Assembly: GCF_007747655.1 (NCBI RefSeq)
Contig: NZ_CP036274.1
Coordinates: forward strand, 1,178,001-1,242,000
DNA from: Anatilimnocola aggregata
GTDB taxonomy: Bacteria > Planctomycetota > Planctomycetia > Pirellulales > Pirellulaceae
Direction: 5' to 3'
DNA: 64,000 nucleotides
Position numbers and translations under genes: made by a program. The notes under the pieces are model-generated. The model was not told where the DNA came from. It did not search any database and saw only the letters and a program-made list of their open reading frames with translations. How positions within the stretch are numbered: the stretch's first letter is position 1; each line of letters begins with the position of its first letter. Below are positions 2,574 to 22,895 of the stretch, in pieces.

Positions 2574-2618
2574 ATATTTGCACATCTTGTATGGCTGATC
2601 GAACCCAAAATTTTGGGT

Positions 2619-2928: not shown

Positions 2929-2990
2929 CTGCTTCCATTTCAAAAACTCGATTTCAACCTGCGTGCCTCATGCACGAAAAACAAACCTAT

Positions 2991-5743: not shown

Positions 5744-5791
5744 ATCACTCTTACACAGTGGATGTCGTGGGTTCGAGTCCCCCACCGCCCA
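5744..5791 (+). pseudogene. 3' half of a tRNA-Val(UAC) gene
   Basis: An anticodon stem TCACT/AGTGG encloses the loop CTTACAC (5750-5756), giving anticodon UAC. The variable loop ATGTC follows, then a T arm (GTGGG, loop TTCGAGT, CCCCC with one mismatch) and the acceptor 3' strand ACCGCCC plus A. No D arm and no 5' acceptor strand (expected GGGCGGT) are present upstream, so this is a fragment, as is usual in an attachment site. The stop codon of intB (5751-5753) lies within the anticodon loop on the opposite strand. Confidence 0.75.
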
Positions 5792-7052
5792 TTAGAGGGG
5801 TTTTGCCTAAGTGAGCCAGAGTGCGACTTGGTGCGAAATCTTCCTTGTTTTTCGATGCTTCTGCCGACCGGGATGCCCTGGCTGGCGTGCTCAGTCCGGG
5901 GTTGTCGCATCCTGGTTGCACCGGATTTTGCAGCGCGCTATCAAGTGGCGTTGCTGCTGCCTTCTCAAAGTCGGTGTCCGTTGTCTGCCAGTAATGCTTT
6001 TGAGCAATCAGTGTGCTGTGCCCCAGCCACTCGGCGGCGACATGCCCCGGAAACTGACCGGCTAACTCTGTTGCTCGGGTTGCGCGAAGATTTGCGAACA
6101 GTTTCGGCCACGGTTTGAGGCCCGCGCGGGCGATGATCTTGAGAAGCGTCGTTCGCCAGTTCACCCCCGGCTCGCGTGATTTGGTGATAACGAATTCCGT
6201 GCCCGGTGCCGCTTGATCAAACATGCGTTCCAGAAGCACCCGAAGCTCCGGGAACAACGGAATGACACGGCTTGCGCCGCCAGCGTGATGTTCGGTTTTA
6301 GGCGAGTGAACGGTGATGCGGTTGCGCGCCCAGTCAATGTCACCCCACCGCAGGCCTAGGTGTTCGCTCGGGCAGCGCAGGCCGCCGAATCGACTGAGAG
6401 CAAAGATCATTTGCCATTCATCGCTGTTGCAGGCATCCAGCACCTTCTGAGCATCGGCGCGGGTGATGAAGTAGTCTTTCGAGTCATTCACTTGATCGCC
6501 AGATTTTAGATCTGCAAACGGGCTTTCCTCGACCAGTCGCTTCCTTACAGCCCATCGAAAAAATTGCTTTGCGATGCCGGCACGACGGCGGGCTGTGCTG
6601 AGCGATAGCTTCTGGTTTTGCTCGAGCCAGATTCGCCACGCTTCGGCATCGGCTGGCGTTACATCGCGCAGTGGCTTGCTATTGCCCAAAAACTCTCGCA
6701 AGCAGCGCATTGTGTGGCCGTAGACAATTTTCGTCGCGCGTTTAACATCCGGCCGGGCCTTGTCGTACAGGTCCAGCAACTCGCCCACGGTAACCGCCTC
6801 GCGCTCGGCAACTAGTCCGACGGCAACTAGTTTGTCGCGCAAGATCCCATCGATTTCATTCAGCCAACGGGCAGTACCATCGTCGATTGCATGGCCCGTG
6901 ATTGCCGCGGCGGCGAGAATCTCTACTCGGAACTTCACCGACTTAGCCATGGCTAATGGCACCGGGCCCAGGCGGATCGTCTTGCGACGCCGATTGGCTG
7001 CTTTGAACTGAATCGTCTTGTTGCCATTCTTGTCGGTAGCGAGAGATGCCAT
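5751..7052 (-). CDS. Tyrosine recombinase of element B (intB), C-terminus supplied by tRNA DNA
   Basis: The start ATG at 7052 has GAAAGG 8 bases upstream; an earlier in-frame ATG at 7118 is less likely. The 433-residue product has an N-terminal DNA-binding part (IQFKAANRRRKTIRLG), a SAM-like core-binding domain (TVGELLDLYDKARPDVKRAT) and the catalytic domain with box I Arg in SRFGGLRCPSEHLGLRWGD, FANLRATRATEL as box II (Asn where His is usual), WLGHSTLIAQKHYWQ with the His and the Tyr nucleophile, then a low-complexity tail. The last 13 residues (MGGGGLEPTTSTV) are encoded by the tRNA-Val fragment and end at a stop in its anticodon loop. The probable native tail is at 22574-22785. In the excised circle the protein would be about 498 residues. 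Activity of the integrated form is uncertain because this tail is lost. Confidence 0.88.
   Translation of the reverse strand: MASLATDKNGNKTIQFKAANRRRKTIRLGPVPLAMAKSVKFRVEILAAAAITGHAIDDGTARWLNEIDGILRDKLVAVGLVAEREAVTVGELLDLYDKARPDVKRATKIVYGHTMRCLREFLGNSKPLRDVTPADAEAWRIWLEQNQKLSLSTARRRAGIAKQFFRWAVRKRLVEESPFADLKSGDQVNDSKDYFITRADAQKVLDACNSDEWQMIFALSRFGGLRCPSEHLGLRWGDIDWARNRITVHSPKTEHHAGGASRVIPLFPELRVLLERMFDQAAPGTEFVITKSREPGVNWRTTLLKIIARAGLKPWPKLFANLRATRATELAGQFPGHVAAEWLGHSTLIAQKHYWQTTDTDFEKAAATPLDSALQNPVQPGCDNPGLSTPARASRSAEASKNKEDFAPSRTLAHLGKTPLMGGGGLEPTTSTV
5768..5793. other. Attachment core of element B, left copy
   Basis: A 26-base direct repeat identical to 22786-22811. It begins TGGGTTCGAG and ends CCGCCCATT, which is the T-loop and acceptor end of a tRNA gene, the classic target of tyrosine recombinases. 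Sequence on both sides diverges immediately. The core is inside the intB reading frame. Confidence 0.85.
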
Positions 7053-7197
7053 TCGTATACCTTTCAAAAAACTGAGTTCGTCGGTCGGAATCATACGGGG
7101 CGATGCAAGGGCTAGCAAGACTTCGCATTTCGTTTTTGCGATTCCCCTGTGCCCATTGAAGCCATCGGTTTGGAATTAAGGGAGGAAGGCCGGTCCG

Positions 7198-7308
7198 GGG
7201 TGGTCACCCTGACCCACCATTGCGGGTTGAATGGCAGCATGAATTGGCGAGTTAAACACCTTTTTTACGCATGCAGTTTCAGGTCACCCTGACCACCCCT
7301 GACCACCC
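7198..7308. repeat. GGTCACCCTGACC repeats downstream of the primase gene
   Basis: GGTCACCCTGACC, itself a short palindrome (GGTCA/TGACC), occurs at 7202-7214 and 7282-7294. CTGACCACCC occurs twice in tandem at 7289-7308. The repeats fill the gap between the primase stop and the intB start. They could be a replication origin recognised by the adjacent primase, or terminator/operator sites; position is the only support. Confidence 0.35.
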
Positions 7309-7312
7309 AGGA

Positions 7313-9478
7313 CTAGAAGCCCTCTAGTGAAAGCAATCGCACCCCGACATAGGTGTGCCACCGTTTGTCGCCTTCTCTGCGGCGAACGGGACGGACCGCT
7401 GGGCAAGCGGCATAAAGGTCGCGAGCGAACGTGGCATCGTTCACTGCCTTGCTGTTGTTCGCCAGCATCCAGGCGACGTAAGCGGCGTAGAGGCTCTTCG
7501 TCGGCTCTTCCACAAGGGGCGATAGTTCGCACCGTTCCCGCACAAAATGTCCAACGGGCGAAGTGAGGTCTTCCATCTGTTCTCGCATTTGGTCACCAGC
7601 CGCGGGCTGCAGGAGATACCCGCGCTCCCTGAGCCGCCGCCAGCCTCGGATTGCCCACAGCATAATTCCCGCGCGCTCTTCCAAAAGCTTTTCGGTAAGC
7701 TTTCGATCCTCGGCTCCGTAGAACGACTTGGTCATCCGCAGGATGATCAATCGACCTGCTAAAGCACCCGACGAATCGCCGAGCCGCGGGAGTTCGTTTG
7801 TCAATATCATCAACCGTGTCAATAGCTTAGTTGAGTTGACCGGGGGCAAATGCTTGCGATCAACGTCGATCCCATCTTCGCCGCTGATCGACAACAACCG
7901 TTCGGTTACCACGGCCGAATCCGTCCTGCCGCTCAATCGCGCGTCGCTGATGATGGCAACAGTTTTGTGAAGTAAGGACTGCAAACCGAAATTGGTTCCT
8001 AGCCCGCTCATCGTCGGGCCGCAACAGTTGTACTCACCGACGACGGATCGCAGTACCCGCGCGAGCGTACCTTTGCCGCTACGCTTCGGGCCGAGAATGA
8101 GTAGAATTTTCTGGAACGATGTATCTGGGGTAAGGCAAAGACCGAACCATTCCTGCAGCATGTCGACGCTCTCTTGGTCGTCTTCCCAAAGTTGAGCCAT
8201 GAATTGCAACCAGTGCTCCGGACTGGGCGCGTTCGGATCGAATTCAAAGTCAATCGCAGCCGGGCTGAAGAACAACGGTGTTGCCGGTATTGAGTAAAGA
8301 ATCGGCTCATTGGGATTGTTCAACACTGTTGCGAACGATGGCAAATGCACAATTGCGTTTTTTGTCGCCAGCAGGTCACGCGGTTCCCACGCCTCGCAGC
8401 CGTTCGGTTGTTCCAGCCAGCAAGGGGGACTATAGCTGACCGGTAAGATTGCTTGCGCTTTTACTTGGTCAAGCACATTGTTGGTGATTCCAGTCGACAG
8501 ATGGTTAAAGTCCTGATTGATTTGGTTCACCAAGCGCGCCCGTACCTCACACGGCGGGATCTCCACATAGCGGCCAGCAGTCCAAAGGACAAACCCACCC
8601 CGATGGAAGCGAACTCGATAGACTCCATCCTGTTCGCCGGTTTCCAGGAATTGTTTTGCTACTATTGCGGGGTCCAACTTGCTCGCAGTTAACTTTTCGC
8701 TATCCGGCGCAACCGGCAATGGTTCAATCGCATCGTCGATCAACTGCCGGAGTCGCCGTTTGCCATCGTCGCCGGCTGCAACCAGTAGGTCGTCCAGTCC
8801 TTGCTTAGCGCCTTCAATACCGTGAGGAATGCGTAGGCAACGAACGATAGCCCCTTGAGCGGCAAGTGCTGCGGCTAATCGAGACTCAGCATTCTGCACT
8901 CCCTCTTTTTCTTCGAGGTCGCTGTCAAACGCGATGAAGACCTTTCGGCCATGCCAAGCGATCTCGGCCAATTCCGGCAGCAAACATTCTTGTTTCGCAT
9001 GTTTCCAACCATAGACTCCCACTAGGCCTAGACAAGGAAAGCCTTCTTGGGTTGCCTTGGCAGATTTCTTTTCGCCTTCGGTGAACAGCAATTCCTGGCG
9101 AACGTCCTGCAGATAATCTGCAACGCCGGGGGGAAGATAAACTTGGTTCGGCTCGCCGCGAGGTGATTCGTACTTAATCTTTTTTTCGTTCCGATCGACG
9201 CGCGGATTGTCCGGCTTCACGCGGGAGTAGCCATTACTGCCGTCGGCACGAGCGAAGGGGAAAACGATGGCCGGTACCAGCTTCTTCACCCACCGTTCGT
9301 CAAGTTTCAAAATTCGGCCGAGCTTCGCCGGCGTCCACTCGGAATAGATGCCAGCTGCTTTTATAGTTTCGGCAGACAGGCCACTTCCTTCCATGAGTTC
9401 CCGCTCATGGTGCGGCATCAGTCCCTTGCCATCAGCTACTTGAGTGCTGGCGGTGGCAGGAGAGCGCGGGGCGGTCAT
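7313..9478 (-). CDS. Primase/SF3 helicase of element B (P4/D5-like)
   Basis: The start at 9478 is set by the ATGA overlap with the upstream HTH gene; a longer frame to 9808 runs over both HTH genes and is rejected. The 721-residue product begins with a DUF3854-type TOPRIM-like region (LLFTEGEKKSAKATQEG at about 120-140 and VFIAFDSD near 180). A linker follows, then a superfamily 3 helicase domain with Walker A LGPKRSGKGTLARVL, Walker B TVAIISDARLSG, and a sensor region LMILTNELPRLGD. The C-terminal domain resembles the D5/P4 winged-helix region. It would unwind and prime DNA at the element's origin, allowing autonomous replication after excision. Third gene of a coupled operon with two HTH proteins. 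Confidence 0.88.
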   Translation of the reverse strand: MTAPRSPATASTQVADGKGLMPHHERELMEGSGLSAETIKAAGIYSEWTPAKLGRILKLDERWVKKLVPAIVFPFARADGSNGYSRVKPDNPRVDRNEKKIKYESPRGEPNQVYLPPGVADYLQDVRQELLFTEGEKKSAKATQEGFPCLGLVGVYGWKHAKQECLLPELAEIAWHGRKVFIAFDSDLEEKEGVQNAESRLAAALAAQGAIVRCLRIPHGIEGAKQGLDDLLVAAGDDGKRRLRQLIDDAIEPLPVAPDSEKLTASKLDPAIVAKQFLETGEQDGVYRVRFHRGGFVLWTAGRYVEIPPCEVRARLVNQINQDFNHLSTGITNNVLDQVKAQAILPVSYSPPCWLEQPNGCEAWEPRDLLATKNAIVHLPSFATVLNNPNEPILYSIPATPLFFSPAAIDFEFDPNAPSPEHWLQFMAQLWEDDQESVDMLQEWFGLCLTPDTSFQKILLILGPKRSGKGTLARVLRSVVGEYNCCGPTMSGLGTNFGLQSLLHKTVAIISDARLSGRTDSAVVTERLLSISGEDGIDVDRKHLPPVNSTKLLTRLMILTNELPRLGDSSGALAGRLIILRMTKSFYGAEDRKLTEKLLEERAGIMLWAIRGWRRLRERGYLLQPAAGDQMREQMEDLTSPVGHFVRERCELSPLVEEPTKSLYAAYVAWMLANNSKAVNDATFARDLYAACPAVRPVRRREGDKRWHTYVGVRLLSLEGF

Positions 9479-9738
9479 TTGGCACCGCCTTGCGCTGTCG
9501 TAACGCGTTGACCAGGCCGCGGGCAGCCGGCGGCAATCCAAGCGCGTAGTTCGTTCGGGCAGTAGCGGGTCAAACGGCCGATGCGCCGGCACGGGATTGC
9601 CCCCTCGGCAACCAATCGATTGATGGTTCGGATCGAGATGCCAAGCAAATCGCCGGCGTCCAGGCCGTCGATCAACAATGGCTCTGGCTTCGTCGGCTCG
9701 GGCAGTTGCTGCCGCGGTGGAAGCAGGTGTCGGTTCAC
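9475..9738 (-). CDS. Excisionase-like HTH protein, second of two
   Basis: An 87-residue protein starting at a GTG (9738) that overlaps the previous stop (GTGA); its own stop overlaps the primase ATG by 4 bases. Residues 24 to 75 (LIDGLDAGDLLGISIRTINRLVAEGAI) form a MerR/HTH_17 winged helix with the usual PCRRIGRLTRYCPNELRAWI wing. Such proteins bind DNA to direct excision or control the operon. Pairing of two such genes before a primase fits a role in excision and replication control. Confidence 0.85.
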   Translation of the reverse strand: MNRHLLPPRQQLPEPTKPEPLLIDGLDAGDLLGISIRTINRLVAEGAIPCRRIGRLTRYCPNELRAWIAAGCPRPGQRVTTAQGGAK

Positions 9739-9947
9739 TTCGCCACCTCTTCACGCTGGGCAATCCAGGCTTGAAGTGCCGTTGGGGAGTACAGTACCCG
9801 TCGCCCAACTCGCACGAACGGAATCTGGCCCGAGTTGGTCAACGTCCAGAGTGTGCGGGAAGAAATGCTCAGCCGTCTGGCAGTTGCACGAGCGTCGAGT
9901 AGGAGCCGGTCGTTAAAGGTGATCGGGACCGACTGAGAAGTAGACAT
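9735..9947 (-). CDS. Excisionase-like HTH protein, first of two
   Basis: A 70-residue protein with one HTH_17 domain: LLLDARATARRLSISSRTLW (helix-turn-helix), then GQIPFVRVGRRVLYSPTALQAWI (wing and last helix). It heads the operon and overlaps the next gene by 4 bases. It could be the recombination directionality factor for intB or the operon regulator. No clear ribosome binding site was found, and inverted repeats that could be its operators lie just upstream. Confidence 0.85.
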   Translation of the reverse strand: MSTSQSVPITFNDRLLLDARATARRLSISSRTLWTLTNSGQIPFVRVGRRVLYSPTALQAWIAQREEVAK

Positions 9948-10240
9948 TTTCTAACCTCACTGCGATTTTATGTTCCAAAACATGCCAGATGCTCGGTCGC
10001 AGTATTTCGTTTGGCGCGCACGCGCACGGATTTCGCTGATTTTCGTGCGCGCTTCTGCAAGGAATTGAACGGCAACGTGCCGATCGGAATTGGGTTGCAA
10101 GAAAACGGCGTACGAAATTAAATGCCGCTTGACACAATTCCGATGCAGTGCGGAAGCGCACAAATTGCACTCGCGCCGAACTTAGCACTTTCCGACTATT
10201 TGCTTGGGAAGCTCAACGTTTGAAGGCCGGCATGAAGCAC
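9948..10240. promoter_or_regulatory. Control region of the HTH-primase operon
   Basis: The leftward operon starts at 9947, so this holds its promoter. Two inverted repeats stand out: GCGCGCACG (10014-10022) with CGTGCGCGC (10044-10052), and TCGGAATTG (10084-10092) with CAATTCCGA (10135-10143). A small ATGTT/AACAT palindrome lies at about 9969-9981. These could be operators or part of a replication origin. No gene is seen before the integrase remnant begins. Confidence 0.35.
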
Positions 10241-10620
10241 CTTGCGCCGTCCCTTCTACTGGAAATCTCGCAAAAGCAGGTTTATCAAAGTCAAGCAACC
10301 AGGTCGGTTCACGCCGAAATGTACTGCACCGCCAGGACGAGCAAACGGCGCCCAAGAAGTGGGCTGAGTTGGCGGCGGTCGATCGACCCGAGGCGCCGAC
10401 TGCCCAGATGTTTGCCTTTGCCGAGGCGTTGCTCCGCTGGGGCCGTCTCTAATGTCACGCCCAAGACTTACCGCGATTGCCAGGACTTCATTGTGTCCTT
10501 CTGCAAAATGCATCGCCACTCCGTCGTTCGCGATCTGAAGCCGTTTCCCTTGACTCGCTGGCATGCGACAGCGGATGGAATCCCTGGTCCATTTCTCTCC
10601 AAGGCTGTTAAGAAAAAGCG
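10240..10620 (+). pseudogene. Decayed tyrosine integrase, N-terminal part
   Basis: Three reading frames together resemble the N-terminal part of planctomycete integrases. The first has a PFYWKSRKSRFIKVKQPGRF-like stretch around 10240-10300. The second reads QDEQTAPKKWAELAAVDRPE around 10335-10400. The third reads TPKTYRDCQDFIVSFC followed by VRDLKPFPLTRWH around 10460-10565, the usual core-binding domain pattern. At least two frameshifts and the absence of a catalytic domain make it a relic, probably of an earlier occupant or an ancestral integrase. It is read opposite to intB. Confidence 0.6.
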
Positions 10621-11020
10621 GTCCCTTGATTCGCAGGGGAAGTGCGATGCGCGTGAGGGTCTGGCTGGTCGGCTTCACTTACTTCTGCGGCCACGCGGAG
10701 TCGCTCTGACGTCCCGCACCTTCGCCAACGGCAAACATCACGCCCCGGTATAAATCGCTGCAAAATCACCTCGGGAATCTCCATCCTGGGGCTTCCGTTT
10801 CATGGCTAGACACAATGTCTGCTGCGGTGGCAAAAAAACTAGCAGCCTAAGCGGTTGCTACGGAAGCATTTGCGCGCTGGCTCAAGAGATTTCGTGCGCA
10901 GACGGAGATTTTTGTCGCCAGAGAGCCCCGCGAAGTCCACTTATGGATTGAAGCCACACGACTACGCGAACTGCATGTCGCAGTTGGGTAGCAGTGGCAA
11001 AACCAAACAGGAGTCTTTCT
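10621..11020. other. Intergenic region, nothing assigned
   Basis: Between the integrase relic and the next gene there are only short frames in several registers without ribosome binding sites. A promoter for the gene at 11021 is expected but none was defined. Confidence 0.35.
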
Positions 11021-11392
11021 ATGTACAAGGTTGTTGTTGAGGTATCCCCTCGCGATTACCACGAGGTCGCCGCCGAGCTGGCAGTACCTGATTACGGGGG
11101 GGCGTGGATTGTCGCCTCGTGTAATTCAGTTGCCCAGACCGAATCGTCATCCGACACCTTCGGAATGGCATTCAAAGTCGTGTTGGCATTCGACTGCATC
11201 GCAAGCGAGTGCCTCCAGGCGTGGGTTGTGGGGGAACCTTGGTTTCTTGCAATCGACACGTCAGGAAATCAGGTGGCCCGCAGCGAATGCCGAGCATCGC
11301 GTCAGGGAACCAGCTCGTCTGGTTTCATTCTCCCTCTCGCGCCAAACGATTGGGTTACGTGCTTACCTCCAGCGGAGGCAATCGCGGCCTAG
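11021..11392 (+). CDS. Hypothetical 123-residue protein of element B
   Basis: The ATG at 11021 has CAGGAG about 8 bases upstream. An upstream GTG at 10994 is in frame but lacks a site. The protein (MYKVVVEVSPRDYHEVAAEL) begins with a beta strand and an amphipathic helix. It continues as a mainly beta-rich domain without Cys clusters or membrane segments and ends APNDWVTCLPPAEAIAA. No family is recognised. It is read rightward, apart from the primase operon, with two further rightward genes behind it. Confidence 0.5.
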   Translation: MYKVVVEVSPRDYHEVAAELAVPDYGGAWIVASCNSVAQTESSSDTFGMAFKVVLAFDCIASECLQAWVVGEPWFLAIDTSGNQVARSECRASRQGTSSSGFILPLAPNDWVTCLPPAEAIAA

Positions 11393-11538
11393 TCACACAC
11401 CAAACCCAGAAGATCCCTCGCGGCCACGCTTTTTTCCAGACGGGAAGACGCAGTGGTAGTGCTGAACATTCAGTCATTGTGGCCCGAGTCTAAGCTATCC
11501 ACTGCGACTTCTCCGTCTCGAAGAGACGAAGAAGCAGA

Positions 11539-12138
11539 ATGAAGGATTTGCAAGCTAATAAGTTTCAGCGGACGCTGAAACGCCTTGTGAGAAACGCAAT
11601 TGGAGGACGGTTCCTCCCGCAAGGTGCAACCGAAGATGAGATTTCGCAACAAGCATGTTTGCTGCTTGTGCTCCTCTTGGGGGTGGAAAAATGTGAACAA
11701 CTCATTGATCAAGAGAGCCTTGCAGCCGAAGACATCCGGATGATGACTTTGGCCGCAAAGCGAGCGGCAGGTAACGCTATGTGGGCCACCCAGAAGCGTA
11801 ACCAGCGGAGCAAGCAGCGCAAGTTGGCAGAACTCAAGCAGTGGTTTCCGGAAGCTTCCGCGGCTGAACTTCAGGTTCGTCTGGGTAAGCTTGCCGAATT
11901 CGATCGCTTGAGCCTAGCGGAAGAGCAACCCGCTCGACCGGAATTAAACGTCGAAGTTGTCGCCGACCTTCGAGATGCTTTTTTTCACATGTCATCGATT
12001 GAGCGTCGCTTGATCGACTTGCTGCGGAAACGCATTTCCAGAACAGCGATCCGAAAGCGACTTCAAGTTACGAGAGAGGAGCTGGTAGTGCTCATCGATT
12101 CGCTCGAACAAAAGTTGCTAAGCATCATTAAACCATGA
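11539..12138 (+). CDS. Sigma-factor-like or helical DNA-binding protein
   Basis: A 199-residue, mostly helical protein. The N-terminal part (RTLKRLVRNAIGGRF...) and middle (RSKQRKLAELKQWFPEA) are basic. The C-terminal 60 residues (LRDAFFHMSSIERRLIDLLR, ISRTAIRKRLQVTREELVVL) have the spacing of a sigma-70 region 4-type helix-turn-helix. Family membership is not certain. It could regulate element genes. The next small gene begins 8 bases after its stop, so the two are probably co-transcribed. The ribosome binding site is weak. Confidence 0.5.
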   Translation: MKDLQANKFQRTLKRLVRNAIGGRFLPQGATEDEISQQACLLLVLLLGVEKCEQLIDQESLAAEDIRMMTLAAKRAAGNAMWATQKRNQRSKQRKLAELKQWFPEASAAELQVRLGKLAEFDRLSLAEEQPARPELNVEVVADLRDAFFHMSSIERRLIDLLRKRISRTAIRKRLQVTREELVVLIDSLEQKLLSIIKP

Positions 12139-12145
12139 GAGCAGC

Positions 12146-12367
12146 ATGAAAACCAAAAAGATCGTTAGTGGCCATGGGGGGAAGGACGATGCCAAGCAAC
12201 TGCTTGCCATTCGTTCCTTCTTAGGCCTACTAACACCCCGACAAATTGCTGAGACAAAGCTCCGCACTGTCTCAGACCCCGAATTGGGAGCGATGCTTAA
12301 CGCTCTCGAAACGGGGTGGAAACTAGGTTCCGTGCTTCGCTCGGAACCGGCCAGCCCTCGTGAGTAG
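12146..12367 (+). CDS. Hypothetical 73-residue protein
   Basis: This lies 7 bases downstream of the sigma-like gene, with GAGAG just ahead of the ATG. The product (MKTKKIVSGHGGKDDAKQLL) is helical and partly basic. Its middle, LGLLTPRQIAETKLRTVSDP, might form a short helix-turn-helix. There is no membrane segment. It probably works with the preceding gene. Confidence 0.45.
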   Translation: MKTKKIVSGHGGKDDAKQLLAIRSFLGLLTPRQIAETKLRTVSDPELGAMLNALETGWKLGSVLRSEPASPRE

Positions 12368-12531
12368 TCAACAGGTTCGCCTCCGCCCGCAATGATGCGG
12401 CGGGGGGCGGAACTTGTCGTCGCTCGATAGGGAACCAGTAGACGCTCGGTACCAATACCGAGACCCAACATCATCGAGCGACGCTGCTAACGCTGCGTCG
12501 CTTTTTTCATGTGCCGTCCGCTCCCGCTGAC
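12368..12531. other. Short gap between the small genes and the decayed cluster
   Basis: It contains a GC-rich stretch with no recognised gene or clean terminator. Confidence 0.3.
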
Positions 12532-15159: not shown

Positions 15160-15349
15160 TTGAAACCTCGAAGCGCGCATGCGCTTCGGCAACTCTCTGG
15201 TGAGTCCGCAAACTTGCGAGAAGTTCGCAATCAGCTCACGTTTGGCGTGATTTGCAACTAAGTAGTCTGCCTCATCACCACATGACCAGATTTTGGCAGG
15301 GTCATTACAAAACCTCACTTGACCGAATGCAAAACAGCGAACCGTTATT

Positions 15350-16081
15350 TTAGTCGGCGTTTTTCTTTCGCTGTCGCCCGCGCATCGCCCGCACTTTCCC
15401 TTGTAGCCGCGTCAATTCCCGAACCTTAATTCCGTGGGCATCGCAAAACTCTTTTCGTGACGTCCCTTGCCGACGTGCGGCCTCGTAGTGCCTGAGTAAT
15501 TGCAATTCGCTGGGCAAAAGGGGATGGGGTTTTGACTTTCGTCCGCGGCCATTTGCTTTCGCAGCTGGCTGGGTGGAACCAAGCGTATCCAAACGGTGAC
15601 AAAGCACGCCTTCAAAGTCCTCATAGACGCCAGTCAGCCCGCGGATCGCTTCTTGTGCCTCGCGGACGTGGTTGCCGTATCGGTGAGCAAAGTCGTCGGT
15701 TGACAGCGGGGCACAAGAGTCCTTTTCGATCGCATTTCTACACTCGCGCACAATGTCGCGATGCGACTCCATGTCGTGGCGCAAGGCGTCCGGAAGATGC
15801 TCGTTGACGCGCTGCCATCGCGCAGCGGGTAACTCTTGCAGCGGACGGAAAGCAGCGACATTCTTGGCAAGCCAGGTCGCGTACTTTCCGATCTTGTGGC
15901 GGACAACGGAGATTTTTGCGAGAGATAGGGATTCGAGCCTCACTGCATCGTCGACATCGATACAGCCGGCGTAGAACGCGATCAGGTTTTGTGTTTCCCG
16001 CAGGAGAGTTCGCAGGCCGGCGCGTGAATCGAGCATCGAAATTACGGCGCTGACGTCTTGTTTCGCGCTTTTGCGTTTCAT
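15350..16081 (-). CDS. Third gene of the restriction operon, helical with C-terminal HTH
   Basis: A 243-residue protein whose ATG overlaps the stop of the methyltransferase by 4 bases. The first 150 residues are helical (MLDSRAGLRTLLRETQNLIA) with a negatively charged middle. A Lys/Arg-rich hinge follows, then residues 195 to 240 (EAARRQGTSRKEFCDAHG, REGKVRAMRGR-like end) with the pattern of a helix-turn-helix. It is the last gene of the operon, so it may regulate or assist the system, for example as a modification-linked control protein. No known subunit is recognised. Confidence 0.55.
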   Translation of the reverse strand: MKRKSAKQDVSAVISMLDSRAGLRTLLRETQNLIAFYAGCIDVDDAVRLESLSLAKISVVRHKIGKYATWLAKNVAAFRPLQELPAARWQRVNEHLPDALRHDMESHRDIVRECRNAIEKDSCAPLSTDDFAHRYGNHVREAQEAIRGLTGVYEDFEGVLCHRLDTLGSTQPAAKANGRGRKSKPHPLLPSELQLLRHYEAARRQGTSRKEFCDAHGIKVRELTRLQGKVRAMRGRQRKKNAD

Positions 16082-18900
16082 TTCACGGAGTAAACCTTCA
16101 GCACTTCATCGCCGTAGTGGTTGATTACCTTCACGGCGATTTTCCCCTTCTTCGCCGGCACGGGGAAAGGTTGGCTGCGGGTGGAGTAGAGCGAGGCCCA
16201 GGCGGATTCGTCGATTTCGGCGCGGAGGGCGCGCTTCAGCTTTTCGTAGGGCTCGCCGGCGCCAGTGAAGTAGGCGTGGCGGACGAAGAACGCTTCGTCA
16301 TCGTAGTCGGTATCGATGAACCAGCAGGCGATGTCGTCGGTCGAACTGTTGCGAATCACGCCGGTCGTCGGGTCGTAGACGTCTACGCCGTGAATCTCGA
16401 CAACCACCCTCTCGTCGCCAGACTTTTTGTCTTTCGTCCGTTTGATTGCAATGTCCGGCTCGCCGAAAACCATGAACAGGTTGCCAGCCCCGGTTTTCTT
16501 GAGCAACTCATCGCCCATGGACAGGTCGGGGTTCATCCGGCAGATCTGCACGTTCAGCTTGCCGTATCGCTTGGCCTCTTCGTTGACGTGCGGATCGAAT
16601 GAGAAGCCGCAGACATAGAGCAAGTCGAAGCCCACGCCGCGGACAGCTTCCTTGGCAGCTTCTTTGATGAGCTCTGGGCCGACGGTGCCGTGCTCGGGGC
16701 CGATGCAAACGGCGACGCGTTTCTGCTTGCCGTCGGCATCGGTGAAGTCACCCGCGGCGTGGATCCACTCGCCAGCATAGGGTTCCAGGTGGTCGAACTT
16801 CAGGCGTTCGCGTTTCTCGCGAGCTTGAATGCCGGCCTTCTTCAGATTCTCGATGATCATGGTCCCAAAGCGGTCGGGGCCGATGATCTGCGTCTTGAAG
16901 CCGGGGACGAACTTGGTCCCTTCGATCTTCTCTTGCACGGTCAGCCGGCGATGCGGCGAGAGGCTTTCAACAGTGAAAGGGCCGGTCACGCGCACCCGGC
17001 TGTTGTCTTCATAAGGCTGATCGAACAGCAACTCGTGGTCGGCCCGCTTGGCAATGGCGGCGTCGATGTCCTGCTGACGACTACGGAGATTGGTCCACCA
17101 GTCGGCCAATTTCTTTTTAGCAGTCGCGGGCCATTTCTCTTCCGGCTCGCGGGGGATTTCCCATTCTTCCCATTTCGTTTTGAGGATCTTGTTTAACTCG
17201 GCCCGCAGCGTTTCGAGTTCCTCCTGCCAGCGGGCGTGAATCACGTCGATCGCTTCATTGTTGGCAATCGACTTGAGCGTGACGTGAGGGACCCGCTTGT
17301 AGACAAAACCCTTCTTCACGTCCGCTTCGGTTTGATACGGCGGCGGGAACCGGCCGGTGACCTCCGCTTCCTTCTTCAGCCCCTCCGGCGAATCGGAAAG
17401 GAGATAATACGGAAACCGCCCCGCCATCAGCCGCGTCCGCGCCAAGGCAATTGCCACGCGACTCGTATCGCACGTGATCCACCGGCGGCCCCATTGCTCG
17501 GCGACATAAGCGGTCGTCCCACTGCCGCAGGTCGGATCGAGGACGAGATCGCCGGGATCGGTGGTCATGAGGAGACAGCGCGCAATTACGAGTGGACTCG
17601 TCTGTACGACGTAAGCTCTCGCCTCGGCGAATCCAGAAACAGCGGTGTCGGTCCACGTATTGGTAAGTGGGAAAACTGGGAAATCGTCAAGAAAGCGAAC
17701 ATAGGAAAGCGTGTTTCCAATAGCAATTAAGCGGTTAGCAGATGCCAATCGCTTTAGGCCATCCGGGCTTGTCGACCAATACCTTGCGTTCGGCGAAAAC
17801 GACCTACCCTCAAATACGTAATCTCCTTTGCCCAGGCTGTACTCGTGACTGGACGTCAAGTTGTCGCCGCGGAATGGACGTGACATGACAGGCAACTGTC
17901 CATCGCCCTTAACTTCAGAAGATGTCATTCGACGGCGTTGACCATCTGGAAGTTCGATGGATGAGTATTGTGCTGCTCCTTCGCCTCCCAATTCTTTGGA
18001 AATCCAAACCTGCCGAACTTTGACGTTTGACTTGTCTTTTGCAAACCAAAGTATGTAGTCGACGACGCCAGGTATAACGCCGCTCGTCGAAACACTTGTT
18101 TTCTTGAACGCAAGTTGCGCGCACTGGTTCTCAGTTCCAAAGACTTCATCCATCACCGCTCGCACCAAATGCACATTCTCATCCCCAATCTGCACAAACA
18201 CGCTGCCTGACTCCGTTAGCAGGTCACGGGCAACGATGAGCCGATCGCGCAGGTAAGGCAAATACGAATGAATGCCTAACTGCCAAGTATCTCGAAACGC
18301 CTGCACCTGTTCCGGCTGGCGGCTGGCGTCTTCGGCCTTGCCGTCTTTCACATCCCGCTTGCGGGTGCTCACCTGCCAGTTACTGCCAAACTTGATGCCG
18401 TAGGGCGGGTCCATGTAAATGCATTGCACCTGACCTTTGAGCCCTTCTTTCTCCGCGAGGCTCGTCATCACGTGGAGCGAGTTCCCCAGTATCATCCGGT
18501 TGGTCCAGTGGGCGTCGTGCTGATAGAACTCGACCTTCTTTTCGAACGTATCAATGCCATTGAAATCGGCGAACAGATCGAGCTGCTGCTGCGCCGGCTT
18601 GACCGCAAACCGGTTTTTTAAATCGTCGACGATTACCTGCGGATGAATTTTTTCCTGGATGTAAATCGGTACTACCGGCACTTCGAGCGCGCCGCGGTCC
18701 TGCTCGTCCTTCCCCTTCCAAACCAATTGCGGGTCCAGCGACGGATCGCGTGGATAGAGCATGGCCCGCGGTTCGTCCTGGTAGAAATCTCGCAGTTCTT
18801 CCGTCGGAATGTTCTTCCGCCGGTCTTGCTTGTGCTTGATGACTTCCACCGCGGAATCGGCTGCTGCCGCCACGGATTTGCTTTTTGCCTTCTTGGCCAT
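16078..18900 (-). CDS. Type III-like DNA methyltransferase (Mod)
   Basis: A 940-residue protein that would methylate the host DNA at the system's site. Motif IV is DPPY (residues 164-167 in IYMDPPYGIKFGSNW), characteristic of N6-adenine methyltransferases. Motif I, the AdoMet-binding DPTCGSGTT, comes later (about 455-463), so the order IV-I is that of the beta class. The region between them, residues 200 to 440, is the variable target-recognition domain. The C-terminal 450 residues include several domains seen in Type III-related Mod proteins of the BPTD_3080-type systems. It ends 4 bases into the next ORF and starts 28 bases after Res, so Res, Mod and the third gene form one operon. Length and motifs look intact. 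Confidence 0.88.
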   Translation of the reverse strand: MAKKAKSKSVAAAADSAVEVIKHKQDRRKNIPTEELRDFYQDEPRAMLYPRDPSLDPQLVWKGKDEQDRGALEVPVVPIYIQEKIHPQVIVDDLKNRFAVKPAQQQLDLFADFNGIDTFEKKVEFYQHDAHWTNRMILGNSLHVMTSLAEKEGLKGQVQCIYMDPPYGIKFGSNWQVSTRKRDVKDGKAEDASRQPEQVQAFRDTWQLGIHSYLPYLRDRLIVARDLLTESGSVFVQIGDENVHLVRAVMDEVFGTENQCAQLAFKKTSVSTSGVIPGVVDYILWFAKDKSNVKVRQVWISKELGGEGAAQYSSIELPDGQRRRMTSSEVKGDGQLPVMSRPFRGDNLTSSHEYSLGKGDYVFEGRSFSPNARYWSTSPDGLKRLASANRLIAIGNTLSYVRFLDDFPVFPLTNTWTDTAVSGFAEARAYVVQTSPLVIARCLLMTTDPGDLVLDPTCGSGTTAYVAEQWGRRWITCDTSRVAIALARTRLMAGRFPYYLLSDSPEGLKKEAEVTGRFPPPYQTEADVKKGFVYKRVPHVTLKSIANNEAIDVIHARWQEELETLRAELNKILKTKWEEWEIPREPEEKWPATAKKKLADWWTNLRSRQQDIDAAIAKRADHELLFDQPYEDNSRVRVTGPFTVESLSPHRRLTVQEKIEGTKFVPGFKTQIIGPDRFGTMIIENLKKAGIQAREKRERLKFDHLEPYAGEWIHAAGDFTDADGKQKRVAVCIGPEHGTVGPELIKEAAKEAVRGVGFDLLYVCGFSFDPHVNEEAKRYGKLNVQICRMNPDLSMGDELLKKTGAGNLFMVFGEPDIAIKRTKDKKSGDERVVVEIHGVDVYDPTTGVIRNSSTDDIACWFIDTDYDDEAFFVRHAYFTGAGEPYEKLKRALRAEIDESAWASLYSTRSQPFPVPAKKGKIAVKVINHYGDEVLKVYSVK

Positions 18901-18928
18901 GATGCGTGCTTTGCCCGTGCTATAGGAA

Positions 18929-21900
18929 TCAGGTCGTTGCCAACTCTTTGGTTTCGCGCAGGAATTGGCGCAGGATCGTTTTCAAGTTCCAAGGGTCGCT
19001 AGTTTCCAGGAATGCCCAGCGGCCGAATTCGCCGGCGTTGTTCACCGCGGGAATCCACAGGTTGCGGGCTGTCGCTACCTTCGCCGATTTTTCCTTCTTC
19101 GCCTCGCCGGAACATTCAAGCACCAGATTGAGCAAATCATCCGGTCCCTGCCCATCGTCAATGCGAACCAGAAAGTCCGGGAAGTAGCGGCGCTCGATGC
19201 CGTTGATGGTGTAGGGGATGGTGAAGCCAAGCCCCTGATTCTTGACGTAGTGAATAACCTCCCGAAGATCTTCGAGCACGTCCGCGACCTTTTGCTCCCA
19301 GGTCTTGGTGTCGGCGACCATGTGCGAAATATGGCACTTCGCTGGGCTGGTCGGCATTGTGGGTCGCACGGTACTGAAATCAACGCAATCGGTACTGCCC
19401 AGCGGATCGTAGGGCTGCATGATCGGCAGCAAAATCTTGCGGCCGGCGTCGTTGTTGTCGCCGCTGACGATGGCGAGATAAATCCGGTCGGCGGCATCGT
19501 GGGCGAACTCGACCAACAGCAGTAGTTGCTTGAATGCGTCATCGCTGACGTCGACACATTGGTCGAGCCACTCCTGGGCGATTTGCAGCAGTTGCGGAAA
19601 TCGCCAGGCTTGGACCTCATTGTTCCAAGTATGGGCCGCGGGGCGGTCGGTCTGCTTCTCGTTGTCGGCGCGGAAGTACTTTTCCAGCGTTAGCTTGGCG
19701 AGGAGGAAAGCGACTTCCTTTTCCCTGCGTTGCTTCAGGTCGTCGAGCGTGTGAATTACGGATTGACCGACGATCGGCGCGTTCTCGGTCTTAGTCGGAA
19801 TGTCCTTCGTCGAGAGTTTTAGCCGGCAATCACGGGTGAAGCGGTATTTGAGCTCCGGCTCCGCAATGTCATACCGGTAGCCGAGCAGCCGGGGGAAGGA
19901 AATCGCGCATTCCTTTCGTTCGGACAAAGCGCGGACGCGGGTGGGCTGCGGCGTTGGCTTGGGGTTCGCGCTGCCGGTGCTGGCAATGAAGGAGAACGGC
20001 ACGCCGTAGACTTCGGCGTATTCGGGCTCGAATTTACCTTCCGAATTGAGGCTGTAGCTCATGCGCCGCAGGCCGCGGCCGACTACCTGCTCGCAGAGAA
20101 GCTGTGTGCCGAAGGCTCGCACTCCCAGAATGTGCGTGACCGTGTTGGCGTCCCAGCCCTCGGTGAGCATCGAGACGCTGACGACGCACTTGATGTTCTC
20201 GCCCAGCTTGCCGGCTTTGCCGACGGTGTTCATCACTTCGCGGAGAAGTTCTTCGTCGGTCACCTTGTCGGCATCGCGGCCGGGGAAGCGGGCGCGGTAC
20301 TCGGCTTTGAATTCCTCGATCTCCGCGCCAGCGAGGGCTTTGAACTCCGGACTGAGGGACTCGCCCGATTCAAGCTGCTCGCTGTCGATCAGGACGGTAT
20401 TGGGGCGATGCGTCCACTCGCCCCCTTGCTCATTGCTGAAGATCGGCAATGCGCCGGGAACCACGACTTCGGATCCGTCCGGAAGCTCTTTCTCCCAGCC
20501 CGCAATAAAGTCGAAGACCATCTTGGAAACGTTGGTGTTGTTGCAAACGACGATGAAGACCGGCGGCGTCAATCCTCGGGCTCGAGCCTCGGCGTTCTGC
20601 TCCCAGCGCTCGTAGGACTTCTGGTAATTCTGATAGAGGCTGAGTAGCGCCCCTTGGAGCTTGGCCGGCAGGTGGGGCGGGCCGGTTTTCGCGTCGGTCT
20701 TGCGTCCCTTCTTGGGAAGGTCGTCGCGGATGGCGTGCCAGATATCGCGATAGGCCAGCACTTCGCTACTGCCGGAATCGTCCGCAACGGGGACGCGGGG
20801 GATTTTGACGATGCCGGCTTCGATGGCGTCGATGAGGGAGAAATCGGAAACTACCCAGGGGAAGAGTTTTCCTTCGCCGTAGCCGCTCCCTTTCAGAAAG
20901 AAGGGTGTCGCGGACAAATCGTAAACCGAGCGGATGCCGATCTTTTGCTTGATGGCTTCCAGGCCGGTAATCCAGACGCGGGCTTCCTCGTTCCGCTTGG
21001 CAGCTTCCTTGCGATCGTCGCCGGTGAGTTTTTCCGTCGCTTCATCGGCGGCCGCGGCCTCATTCGCCTCATCGTCGGCGATGGCCGCCGGCTTGCCACG
21101 GTAACAGTGATGCGCTTCGTCGTTGATAACGACAATGTTTTTCTTGGTTCCCAGTTCTCGCAACACGCGGCGGACCATTTCGTCCGGGGATTCGGTGAAG
21201 GGACTCGGCCCCCCTTGGGCCAACAGCTTTTTCGTCAGGCTCGCGGCAGATTCCTTTTCCCGGAGCAGAAATCCGTGGTAATTCGCGATGATGATCTTGG
21301 CCTTCTGCAAATCGTCCATTTGCCAGGAGGGGACAATATCGCGCTGCCGGTAGTAACTGTTGGGATCGCTGGGCAGTAACACTCGCAACCGGTCGCGGAT
21401 GGTAATGCCCGGGGCGACAAGTAAGAAGGCATCGGCAAATTTCGGGTTCTGCCGGTCGGCAATCTTGTTGAGCGTGTGCCAGGCAATGAGCATGGCCATG
21501 ACCACCGTCTTGCCGCTACCAGTCGCCATCTTGAATGCGATGCGATCAAGCAGCGGGTTGTGGGCGTCGTTGAAGCTTTTGAGCTCGGTGGCAATCCACT
21601 GGTCGCCGCAGCGGGCCGCCGCTTCGGTCAGATAGATGACGGTTTCCAGGGCTTCGATCTGGCAGAAGAAGAGGGGCTTGTCGCGGTCTGGATCGGTCCA
21701 GTACTCCAGCAGACGCCGGGAAGTGGGGGTGATACTCGGGTAGCGACCTTCCCGCCATAGCCTCACCCGCTCGCGAACGTCGTTGATGAATTTACTTTCG
21801 ACCTTTCGGTCATCCGTCCAATCGGTGTCGAAATACTTTTGCTTTTCCTTTTTCTTCTGCTGGGGGATCGGAAGAAAATAAGCGCTGGGTCGGCGACTGG

Positions 21901-22003
21901 AAATGATTTCTTCCGTGATGCCGTCGTCGTCAAACTTGAAATGACGGCTCGGTTCCTCAAAAGGGCCGTTGAGGATCGGATTTTCGATGTTAACTGCCGC
22001 CAT
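18929..22003 (-). CDS. Restriction endonuclease subunit Res, BPTD_3080-like
   Basis: A 1024-residue SF2 DNA translocase. Walker A ATGSGKT is at residues 160-166, DEAH at 295-298 (NDEAHHCY), SATPFFLKGSGY lies near 370, and a helicase C-terminal part follows (SVSMLTEGWDANTVTHI, ARG finger-like QVVGRGLRRM). The C-terminal nuclease-like domain has FPDFLVRID with Asp943 and VLECSGEAKK with Glu963. The third position expected in PD-(D/E)xK enzymes is Ser965 rather than Lys. The sequence resembles the BPTD_3080 family in overall layout. It is first in the operon, ahead of Mod. Its own promoter would lie in the AT-rich region shared with the divergent HTH gene at 22234. Confidence 0.85.
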   Translation of the reverse strand: MAAVNIENPILNGPFEEPSRHFKFDDDGITEEIISSRRPSAYFLPIPQQKKKEKQKYFDTDWTDDRKVESKFINDVRERVRLWREGRYPSITPTSRRLLEYWTDPDRDKPLFFCQIEALETVIYLTEAAARCGDQWIATELKSFNDAHNPLLDRIAFKMATGSGKTVVMAMLIAWHTLNKIADRQNPKFADAFLLVAPGITIRDRLRVLLPSDPNSYYRQRDIVPSWQMDDLQKAKIIIANYHGFLLREKESAASLTKKLLAQGGPSPFTESPDEMVRRVLRELGTKKNIVVINDEAHHCYRGKPAAIADDEANEAAAADEATEKLTGDDRKEAAKRNEEARVWITGLEAIKQKIGIRSVYDLSATPFFLKGSGYGEGKLFPWVVSDFSLIDAIEAGIVKIPRVPVADDSGSSEVLAYRDIWHAIRDDLPKKGRKTDAKTGPPHLPAKLQGALLSLYQNYQKSYERWEQNAEARARGLTPPVFIVVCNNTNVSKMVFDFIAGWEKELPDGSEVVVPGALPIFSNEQGGEWTHRPNTVLIDSEQLESGESLSPEFKALAGAEIEEFKAEYRARFPGRDADKVTDEELLREVMNTVGKAGKLGENIKCVVSVSMLTEGWDANTVTHILGVRAFGTQLLCEQVVGRGLRRMSYSLNSEGKFEPEYAEVYGVPFSFIASTGSANPKPTPQPTRVRALSERKECAISFPRLLGYRYDIAEPELKYRFTRDCRLKLSTKDIPTKTENAPIVGQSVIHTLDDLKQRREKEVAFLLAKLTLEKYFRADNEKQTDRPAAHTWNNEVQAWRFPQLLQIAQEWLDQCVDVSDDAFKQLLLLVEFAHDAADRIYLAIVSGDNNDAGRKILLPIMQPYDPLGSTDCVDFSTVRPTMPTSPAKCHISHMVADTKTWEQKVADVLEDLREVIHYVKNQGLGFTIPYTINGIERRYFPDFLVRIDDGQGPDDLLNLVLECSGEAKKEKSAKVATARNLWIPAVNNAGEFGRWAFLETSDPWNLKTILRQFLRETKELATT

Positions 22004-22233
22004 TGGATACCGCTGCCCTGCGGAGTGCTGATAGATGCAAGGGTTTGCAAGCTGGTGCAGATTCTAGCGGCGAATAGGAGGGGCCGCCACAAGTAAGAGA
22101 ACCCTTTGGACTGGGGAACCGGTCGGCTATAAGTGTGCAACAAATCGAGGAGCAAAATTTTTTGAGCATGCCGTTTTTCTTACGGGCGATAAAATAAAAA
22201 ATATTCGACGATTCGTAGCATCAGGATTCAGCC
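22004..22233. promoter_or_regulatory. Divergent promoter region between Res and the HTH gene
   Basis: This 230-base spacer is AT-rich toward its right side (for example ATAAAATAAAAAATATTC). It serves the leftward restriction operon and the rightward HTH gene, so the HTH protein may act here. No exact promoter was assigned. Confidence 0.4.
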
Positions 22234-22533
22234 ATGGCTCTCGCAGAATGGACCGACAGCATCAGCAATGACGAAGCTCGTCGTCGGGCCGGCGGCCGGC
22301 GGCGGTACAATGCACTCCGACAGTTTCAGGCGGATCATCGCCAGATGTTGGTGGCAAAGATGATTCAAGCGAGCGGATTCCGGCGAGGAGTTCAGTCCGA
22401 AATTGCCCGCAAGCTGGGCGTCGATCGCGCGACGATCAGCCGTGACGTGAAGGAACTGCGCACCGAGTGGCTGAAGGAAGAGGAATTTCGTCAGTTCTTA
22501 GCAGCATGCGTCGCCGAGACCGTTGCTCGATGA
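22234..22533 (+). CDS. HTH DNA-binding protein divergent from the restriction operon
   Basis: A 99-residue basic protein. Residues 18 to 80 contain a long basic helix (RRRAGGRRRYNALRQF) followed by a helix-turn-helix (QSEIARKLGVDRATISRDVKEL), the motif seen in many small regulators and controller proteins of restriction systems. It is transcribed away from Res, a frequent arrangement for a controller that binds in the shared spacer. A weak CAGGATTC precedes the ATG. A controller role is inferred. Confidence 0.75.
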   Translation: MALAEWTDSISNDEARRRAGGRRRYNALRQFQADHRQMLVAKMIQASGFRRGVQSEIARKLGVDRATISRDVKELRTEWLKEEEFRQFLAACVAETVAR

Positions 22534-22573
22534 TGGCTCAAAAATTCGCTGAGCGACACTTGGGAAGATGCAA

Positions 22574-22785
22574 CTACGATGCTTTGCGAACAAGGGCCAG
22601 CACCTTAGCGCGATCCTGCGGCGAAAGGGCCGGCCACGCAGCAATTATCGCCGCCAAATCAGGATCGCTGGTTCCCGCTGGAGTCGTGCAATTCGGGCAG
22701 CTGTTTTCATCACTTGCACCGGATTCTGCAGCGCGCGAATTCGGCGATTGCCGTAAGTTGCTGTCCTGACAATCGCTTAGAGGAT
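22574..22785 (-). pseudogene. Stranded C-terminal tail of intB
   Basis: The minus strand frame runs from the right attachment core (reading MGGGGLEP across the core) through NPLSDCQDSNLRQSPNSR and ends PQDRAKVLALVRKAS at 22574, 70 residues beyond the core. It is in the same frame as the intB body at the left core. The end (SDPDLAAIIAAWPALSPQDR) resembles the C-terminus of planctomycete integrases. It has no start of its own outside the core, so it is not an independent gene. Joining the two cores in the excised circle would restore it to intB. Confidence 0.8.
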
Positions 22786-22811
22786 TGGGTTCGAGTCCCC
22801 CACCGCCCATT
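22786..22811. other. Attachment core of element B, right copy
   Basis: Identical 26 bases to 5768-5793. Left of it lies element B's integrase tail; right of it lie TTGGGTAAA iterons. There is no anticodon arm here, so the tRNA-derived sequence is limited to the core. Confidence 0.85.
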
Positions 22812-22850
22812 TTTAAACCTTCTGCCGCAACGACTTGCGATTGCTAAACT

Positions 22851-22885: not shown

Positions 22886-22895
22886 AAGGGACAGC

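What the first reader, a model, noticed from the sequence alone, without database searches (positions are those of the whole stretch)
5751..22811. Integrase gene split by its own attachment site: the native tail is 17 kb away
Element B's 26-bp core lies inside the intB frame. On the left, intB ends in residues read from the tRNA fragment. On the right, a minus-strand frame starts in the identical core, in the same register (MGGGGLEP), and runs 70 residues with an end that looks like a planctomycete integrase C-terminus. Excision would rejoin body and tail into one ORF of about 498 codons. Integration would therefore change the integrase C-terminus and could switch off or alter its activity, as in archaeal SSV viruses whose integrase gene is split by integration. 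A bacterial case of this kind, with stop and new tail set by the target tRNA, may be undescribed.
Basis: partly seen in the sequence, partly recalled or inferred. Interest (0 to 1): 0.85.

Follow-up and report, generated by a model that had tools for sequence, protein, structure and literature searches.

The report
Integrase that loses its tail integrating
A mobile DNA element, apparently of a planctomycete bacterium, keeps its landing site inside the end of its own integrase gene, so that inserting itself into a tRNA gene cuts a small helical tail off the enzyme and gives it a short end read from the tRNA; many relatives are built the same way.

Summary
IntB (5751-7118, minus) reads through a 26-bp tRNA-Val core. 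The identical core 17,018 bp away opens, in the same register, a 70-residue tail. Joined at the core they give one 498-codon ORF. Among relatives fetched, 108 of 159 distinct integrases end at or inside an antisense tRNA, and 33 have a second core of at least 15 nt upstream. The far copy opens a tail of at least 55 aa in the predicted frame in 26 of 33, against 11 of 66 in other frames. A cross-validated tail profile scores at least 8 bits in the predicted frame in 27 of 34 (window 49.9), and in 1 of 170 other frames. Paired repeats, probably integrase arm sites, flank the core inside the coding sequence, so attP seems nested in the int gene; a predicted two-helix hairpin follows it. The core is 67 codons past the catalytic tyrosine, so integration exchanges the C-terminus and leaves the catalytic domain whole, unlike archaeal SSV integrases. 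My preferred reading, that the hairpin serves the circular form when it integrates, is inferred.

The parts
5751..7118 (-). intB as integrated: lambda-type tyrosine integrase (433 aa from the ATG at 7052; TTG start possible at 7118); ends in residues read from the tRNA fragment
   Evidence: PF00589, PF13102, phrog_1 integrase; core 67 codons after Y354
5768..5793 (-). near core (attachment site, antisense of the tRNA-Val T arm and acceptor 3' end) inside the intB frame, codes MGGGGLEP
5746..5791 (+). 46-nt 3' half of tRNA-Val(TAC), the landing site; antisense supplies TTSTV and the stop of integrated intB
5916..5938 (-). candidate P-arm integrase site, inside intB codons (ALQNPVQ), 23-nt near-repeat of the P'-arm
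   Evidence: (family D6); binding not tested
22786..22811 (-). far core, identical to the near core
22574..22785 (-). detached native C-terminal tail of intB (70 residues and stop), in frame with the core
   Evidence: (49.9 bits, window not in the training set)
22714..22736 (-). candidate P'-arm integrase site, inside tail codons (RAAESGA)
   Evidence: binding not tested
22580..22663 (-). two-helix hairpin of the tail (residues 50-77 of the 78-residue frame; PDLAAIIAAWPALSPQDRAKVLALVRKA)
   Evidence: predicted helices 50-61 and 64-77; blocks 51-78 at pLDDT 94-98
7313..9808 (-). primase/helicase-like replication gene of the element
   Evidence: DUF3854, DUF5906; phrog_6088 DNA primase
16078..18900 (-). 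Type III DNA methyltransferase (cargo)
   Evidence: MTase_III, 1035 bits
18929..22003 (-). Type III restriction-enzyme-like helicase (cargo)
   Evidence: ResIII; REase_III, 33.6 bits
22234..22533 (+). small HTH-like protein next to the right end
   Evidence: weak

Best explanation
Element B is an integrative element whose attP (P arm, tRNA-derived core, P' arm) lies inside the 3' coding part of its own lambda-type integrase gene. It sits between the complete catalytic domain and a detachable C-terminal two-helix hairpin, in codons for a flexible linker. In the circle the integrase is body-linker-hairpin. Integration into the T arm of a tRNA cuts the hairpin off, leaves it as a separate 3' fragment at the far end, and gives the enzyme a short end and a stop read antisense from the tRNA (five new residues in the window). 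Excision, or a second element landing in tandem, rejoins a body and a tail. The tail is fused to the enzyme only when the core joins them, so selection that keeps it in frame most likely acts in the circular, entering form. Most likely the hairpin helps integration (synapsis with the naked tRNA site, or directionality), and the short integrated form stays catalytically competent for excision but integrates less well. Shown by sequence: anatomy, register, recurrence, paired repeats, conserved tail. Inferred: that excision makes this join, that the repeats bind Int, the hairpin's role, and any difference in activity.
For: Core identity, register and 498-codon join. In 26 of 33 elements with two cores the predicted frame opens a tail of at least 55 aa; other frames 11 of 66. 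Cross-validated profile: 27 of 34 in the predicted frame, 1 of 170 in other frames. Reverse test from tails found by profile: 6 of 9 int/tail pairs that I picked share an exact core of 20-25 nt with the tail in frame (for five; G005, 23 nt). Of the 30 tail loci returned, none carries the IntB-type body in the same ORF, and 21 hold the T-arm antisense upstream in the same ORF (reversed control 0, other-strand control 5; 17 of 23 without loci already used). Same repeated 5-mer on both sides of the core within an element: 20 of 27, shuffled mean 5.2, maximum 11 in 1000. Uncut body-core-tail ORFs: P0059, P0108 (weak tail score, 15.7 bits), L068 1-1461, L081 2-1150 (partial body), L099 (weak, 17.3 bits; T arm seen in its DNA). 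Models: confident lambda-Int-like body of P0059, disordered linker, helical hairpin.
Against: Seven of 33 do not fit cleanly: G104 and G237 have 17-20-residue frames, G067d another tail type (40), G067a 48 residues without the motif, G033 and G136 a 15-nt core with a stop soon after, and L068 an integrase that stops before the core. Dropped before the count, because ARAGORN placed no tRNA there or the position filter failed: L040 and G089 (tails of 74 and 72 with the motif, for) and G067b (42), G021b (14), G187b (9). In the tandem array G041 the second integrase crosses the core in another frame than the tail. Seventy-five of 108 tRNA-ending integrases had no second core in the DNA fetched, 23 of them with over 9 kb upstream. 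The window is not among the 20 of 27 with a shared exact 5-mer repeat. Body and tail similarity do not correlate (rho 0.003, 1020 of 2000 permutations as high, n 27); bodies are all similarly distant (median 49% identity), so power is low, but tail exchange is possible. pN<pS in 17 of 17 pairs used pairs chosen by protein similarity and is biased. No circle junction was observed and no activity measured.
Confidence: 0.7

Rival explanations
1. Passive overlap: attP and the integrase 3' end overlap for compactness. The hairpin is an ordinary C-terminal module, and both forms of the enzyme work equally well, so the exchange has no regulatory meaning.
For: Some relatives end about 20 residues after the body with no tail at all (L090-L093), so the catalytic domain can probably do without one. 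The paired repeats give a DNA reason for the overlap. A Foldseek search finds no solved structure like the hairpin at E<=0.001 that would suggest a function.
Against: The hairpin lies beyond the P' arm and keeps frame and motif in elements whose bodies have a median pairwise identity of 49%, so it is probably used in the circular state at least.
Confidence: 0.3
2. Suicidal integrase, as in archaeal SSV viruses: integration inactivates the enzyme and excision needs another copy.
For: The attachment site is inside the integrase gene, as in SSV-type integrases (PMC8371274, passages).
Against: The catalytic residues lie before the core in IntB, and the lambda-Int-like fold of its relative P0059 is complete before the linker. 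No PF16795 match. Bodies are open in all 108 tRNA-ending integrases, though only by construction of the census.
Confidence: 0.08
3. Degradation switch as in mycobacteriophage BPs: the tail destabilises the long form and integration yields a stable short form.
For: BPs integration shortens a protein at its C-terminus by recombination at an attP inside its gene, and the long form is degraded (PMC4557955, passages).
Against: The last three residues of 27 tails show no common ending and none ends LAA (the ssrA ending is recalled). The conserved part is an internal hairpin, not the terminus.
Confidence: 0.1
4. The detached tail is translated on its own from attR in the integrated state and acts as a separate small peptide, for example on excision.
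For: In the window the core holds an in-frame ATG at its second base, and 19 of 26 tails have some in-frame start nearby.
Against: Only 7 of 26 have an ATG there, and GTG and TTG are common codons. Upstream lies whatever the chromosome holds, so a conserved ribosome-binding site is not expected (inference).
Confidence: 0.06
5. Chance open frame, or a leftover of an unrelated integrase.
For: Frames of 55 or more codons occur in about one in six alternative frames (11 of 66).
Against: Frame-specific profile scores, the reverse test and the paired repeats (23-nt pair in the window).
Confidence: 0.02

Closest known systems
SSV-type (suicidal) archaeal integrases
   Same: Attachment site inside the integrase gene; integration changes the integrase gene (PMC8371274, passages read); tRNA targets (recalled)
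   Different: There integration splits the gene into an N part and a C part that carries the catalytic domain. Here the catalytic domain stays whole and only a C-terminal tail is exchanged. Other Pfam domains, other domain of life.
Integration-dependent immunity of mycobacteriophage BPs and relatives
   Same: attP inside a phage coding sequence; integration shortens a protein at its C-terminus, giving two state-specific forms (PMC4557955, passages read)
   Different: There the altered protein is the repressor and the tail carries a degradation tag. Here it is the integrase, the tail holds a conserved hairpin, and the new end comes from a tRNA.
Lambda integrase (heterobivalent tyrosine recombinases)
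   Same: Fold of the relative P0059, with full-length lambda Int as the top structural match; candidate arm sites on both sides of the core
   Different: Lambda attP lies outside the int reading frame (recalled). Here attP is nested in the coding sequence.
tRNA-targeting genomic islands, and helper-embedded PICIs
   Same: tRNA genes as usual targets (Islander abstract, PMC4383910, listing); doubled motifs at fixed distances on both sides of the attP centre in HE-PICIs (PMC10111431, passages read)
   Different: In the passages seen nothing says that attP lies inside the int coding sequence or that the integrase C-terminus changes.

Membership tests
Lambda-type tyrosine integrases | PF00589 catalytic domain with catalytic R, K, R, Y | tested here: met
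   PF00589 36.7 bits, cut-off 27.1; R226, K252, R323, Y354 located, invariant in the 26-row alignment; their catalytic role is recalled
Lambda-type tyrosine integrases | N-terminal arm-binding domain and arm sites flanking the core | tested here: inconclusive
   N-terminal three-strand-plus-helix region in the P0059 model and paired repeats; binding not tested
SSV-type (suicidal) integrases | attachment site inside the integrase gene | tested here: met
SSV-type (suicidal) integrases | PF16795 (Phage_integr_3) | tested here: not met
   PF00589, PF13102, PF13495 found at E<=0.001, not PF16795
SSV-type (suicidal) integrases | integration separates catalytic from N-terminal part | tested here: not met
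   core begins 67 codons after the catalytic tyrosine
Integration-dependent immunity (BPs-like) | attP inside the repressor gene | tested here: not met
   attP is inside the integrase gene
Integration-dependent immunity (BPs-like) | long form carries a degradation tag | tested here: inconclusive
   no common or LAA ending among 27 tails; stability not measured

The most novel reading that the evidence does not exclude
A widespread planctomycete class of integrases with two state-specific forms. The circular element makes a long enzyme whose tethered C-terminal hairpin licenses integration, and the act of integration removes that hairpin by recombining inside its own coding sequence. Integration thereby ends its own permission, and the host tRNA supplies the stop codon of the resident form.
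Probability: 0.4. Interest if true: 0.9.

Novelty: new variant of a known kind. Interest (0 to 1): 0.8.

Why it matters
[quoted passage not shown] Here a bacterial family appears to have attP, probably with both arms, nested in the integrase coding sequence, and integration rewrites the enzyme's C-terminus. If the hairpin controls integration, directionality would be built into the DNA rearrangement itself. It also explains why so many database relatives end in antisense tRNA peptides (109 of the 120 listed by a broad pattern, 89 by a strict one) while their native ends lie elsewhere: the annotated proteins would mostly be the swapped form.

Tried and rejected
SSV-like inactivation was set aside as the main reading because the catalytic residues stay with the body. 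A protein-database search for the tail region alone scored 1,181 candidates and returned one protein, the query's own full-length record, so the tail is too variable for that tool. Tail against PDB sequences: best E 0.018, not convincing. Against Pfam: 8 families, each matched by one of 24 members, best E 0.028. Tail model against PDB: 3 matches with E<=10, none at E<=0.001. Plasmid and phage collections hold no close relative of P0059 (45 Enterococcus plasmid records and one Synechococcus phage record, all under 60% identity). Body/tail co-divergence: no correlation. pN/pS on tails: 17 of 17 pairs with pN<pS after 7 self-duplicates were dropped, biased by how pairs were chosen. A separate attR peptide: starts not conserved. 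In one search, 3 of 9 int/tail pairs did not match (two about 71 kb apart on one chromosome, one of these with only a 13-nt common string; one on different contigs). Literature: ten paper searches, with at most 20 papers listed each. I read passages of PMC8371274, PMC4557955, PMC10111431 and PMC6035254 only, and saw the rest as listings. In these I saw no bacterial case of attP inside an integrase gene with an exchanged C-terminus. Most subscription papers are not held, so absence from print is not shown; I recall early accounts of int genes overlapping attP (for example phage P22) but could not check them.
Full report
WHAT IS THERE. The 26-bp direct repeat at 5768-5793 and 22786-22811 is exact. 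Its 22-bp centre occurs three times in the 9.0-Mb genome, the third time inside an intact tRNA-Val(TAC) 73 kb to the left. IntB (5751-7118, minus) has PF00589 and PF13102. It reads through the near core and ends MGGGGLEP-TTSTV*; TTSTV and the stop come from a 46-nt tRNA 3' half at 5746-5791. From the far core the same register reads MGGGGLEP plus 70 residues, with the stop at 22574-22576. Joined at the core in a script, body and tail make one ORF of 498 codons from the ATG (the value printed was wrong through an off-by-one slice).

RELATIVES END IN tRNA ANTISENSE. A protein search gave 2,696 homologues with E<=0.001 among 7,997 candidates scored. Of the 120 listed, 109 hold a T-arm antisense peptide such as GDTGLEP in their last 60 residues by a broad pattern, and 89 by a strict one. 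P0059 and P0108 instead carry tails like the window's remote frame.

THE SECOND-CORE TEST. This is a sample of the best matches, not a random one. It holds 159 distinct closed integrases with a complete body; 108 end at or inside an antisense tRNA found by ARAGORN. For 33 of the 108 a second exact core of at least 15 nt lies upstream in the fetched DNA. In the reading frame set by the core the far copy is open for at least 55 codons in 26 of 33 (median 68); in the other two frames 11 of 66 (median 16). The exceptions are G067a, G067d, G104, G237, G033, L068 and G136; they, and five cases dropped by the tRNA or position filter (two for, three against), are set out under evidence against. The other 75 had no second core in the DNA held; 23 of them had more than 9 kb upstream. 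One of these 23, G065, proved to have its core and tail about 46 kb away.

THE TAIL IS ONE CONSERVED MODULE. In five-fold cross-validation a tail profile scores at least 8 bits in the predicted frame in 27 of 34 cases (33 plus the window, which was never in training: 49.9 bits). In the other five frames it does so in 1 of 170; that one is L068, where a neighbouring integrase uses the shifted frame. The consensus of 24 chosen tails is GAESGA...DxxL...AWPxLSExxRxxIL. The tryptophan is present in 24 of 27 tails (26 plus the window) and missing in L062, L241 and G184, three of the four that I had left out of that alignment. Alone, the window tail is predicted as a two-helix hairpin (residues 50-61 and 64-77, blocks 51-78 at pLDDT 94-98) after a low-confidence stretch without secondary structure. 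In the natural long form P0059 the body is confident, residues 382-469 have pLDDT under 50, and helices 472-480 and 486-497 follow at about 72-82. The best structural matches are full-length lambda Int. No convincing PDB or Pfam relative of the tail was found.

REVERSE TEST. Starting from the tail profile, 95 of 392 genomes of the phylum have a match at E<=1e-4. Of the 30 loci returned, none has the IntB-type body in the same ORF; 21 have a T-arm antisense upstream in the same ORF, against 0 in the reversed and 5 in the other-strand control. Seven of the 30 were already in the first set; without them it is 17 of 23. In 10 the T arm begins exactly 51 nt before the start of the profile match, and in 2 at 63 nt. 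I then picked 9 int/tail pairs from the lists. Six (G045, G077, G018, G053, G065, and G005) share an exact 20-25 nt core with the tail in frame (G005, whose longest common string lay elsewhere, shares a 23-nt core read off). Three (G092 twice, G057) do not match. L272 shows what looks like a different PF00589-type integrase with tRNA antisense and the same tail in one ORF (read by eye), so the arrangement may not be confined to this integrase family.

attP SEEMS NESTED IN THE GENE. On both sides of the core lie copies of a repeat made of two 5-mers 12 bp apart (for example GGCGC-N7-GGCGC). The best match before the core lies 129-131 nt from the core start in 13 of 26, the one after it 53-54 or 66 nt from the T arm in 19 of 26. 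The same repeated 5-mer occurs on both sides within an element in 20 of 27 cases; shuffled partners give a mean of 5.2 and a maximum of 11 in 1000. Best 17-mer matches of 15 or more: 23 of 27 within elements, 26 of 108 between, 0 of 77 in random windows. The window itself is not among the 20, but its pair is 23 nt with one mismatch. The variants differ between elements and tend to agree within them (GACGC, AACGC, GGGCC, GGCAC), as expected of arm sites of integrases with different specificity. That they bind integrase is inference. Similar doubled motifs at fixed distances flank the attP centre of helper-embedded PICIs (PMC10111431, passages read).

UNCUT FORMS EXIST. L068 1-1461 and L081 2-1150 are second integrases about 10 kb upstream of a tRNA-proximal one; their ORFs run body-core-tail, as expected when a second element lands in tandem and borrows the neighbour's tail (the L081 body is partial). 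In a third tandem array, G041, the second integrase crosses the core in another frame than the tail. L099 is a viral contig with body, T-arm antisense and a weakly scoring tail in one ORF. P0059 and P0108 come from short contigs (6.3 and 8.8 kb) whose topology I could not see.

HOW IT MOST LIKELY WORKS. The hairpin is attached to the enzyme only when the core joins body and tail, that is in the circle or in a tandem array. What keeps the frame must therefore act there, most simply during integration. After integration the resident gene makes an enzyme with an intact catalytic domain and a short end from the tRNA (median 13 codons inside the tRNA, core included, n 108). Some relatives lack any tail (L090-L093), so the tail is probably not needed for catalysis as such. 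I therefore favour a role in integrative synapsis or directionality, with passive overlap as the main rival. Body and tail similarities do not correlate (rho 0.003), which may reflect low power (median body identity 49%, range 39-65%) or tail exchange between elements at shared tRNA sites. In one search, 17 of 17 pairs had pN<pS, but pairs were chosen by protein similarity and this proves little.

KNOWN KINDS. The archaeal review states that self-disrupting recombinases are found exclusively in archaea (PMC8371274, passages). In BPs-like phages attP lies in the repressor gene and integration removes a degradation tag (PMC4557955, passages). I found no bacterial integrase case in ten paper searches of an open-access library.

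ELEMENT B. It is 17.0 kb and carries a primase/helicase, a Type III methyltransferase, a Type III restriction-like gene and a small HTH-like protein. No structural phage gene was found among the proteins scanned, which are not all of its ORFs. It probably landed in the tRNA half left by a neighbouring element that reaches 73 kb left to the intact tRNA (inference).

Noticed in passing
window about 22788-22956 and L007 from about 2368: The 164 aligned bases from the far core rightwards (core included) match those from the intact tRNA-Val end rightwards, 90 kb away, at 155 positions, so the tRNA's downstream flank with its hairpin is duplicated, probably carried by the neighbouring element.
   Followed up: partly
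window 4328-5632: A second integrase-like gene (phrog_1, 44 bits; no Pfam hit at E<=0.001) starts near the same tRNA fragment and points away from it; perhaps the integrase of the 73-kb neighbour element A.
   Followed up: partly
L287 (G000:C1:6850531-6850629): The same genome holds another detached tail, with AGGACTCGAAC T-arm antisense before it in the same frame (PPPAGLEQ...), a likely remnant attR of another element.
   Followed up: partly
L003 (G000:C1:8290189-8290338): A decayed relative of IntB ends next to what looks by eye like a tRNA-Val(GAC) gene in the same genome; its frame is broken.
   Followed up: no
window 1048-4056: Direct repeats: GCCATCAGTAGAATT blocks about 2.4 kb apart and a 108-nt pair at 84% identity, not explained.
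   Followed up: no
L272 454-1623: What looks like a different PF00589-type integrase carries a tRNA-Ser-like antisense stretch and the same AWPxLP tail in one open frame, suggesting the arrangement in a second integrase family (read by eye, no family search run).
   Followed up: no
G067 loci L165, L168: Two integrases of one genome have another kind of far tail (ALRNALREIL / ALRHALRDLL), so far tails may not all be related.
   Followed up: no
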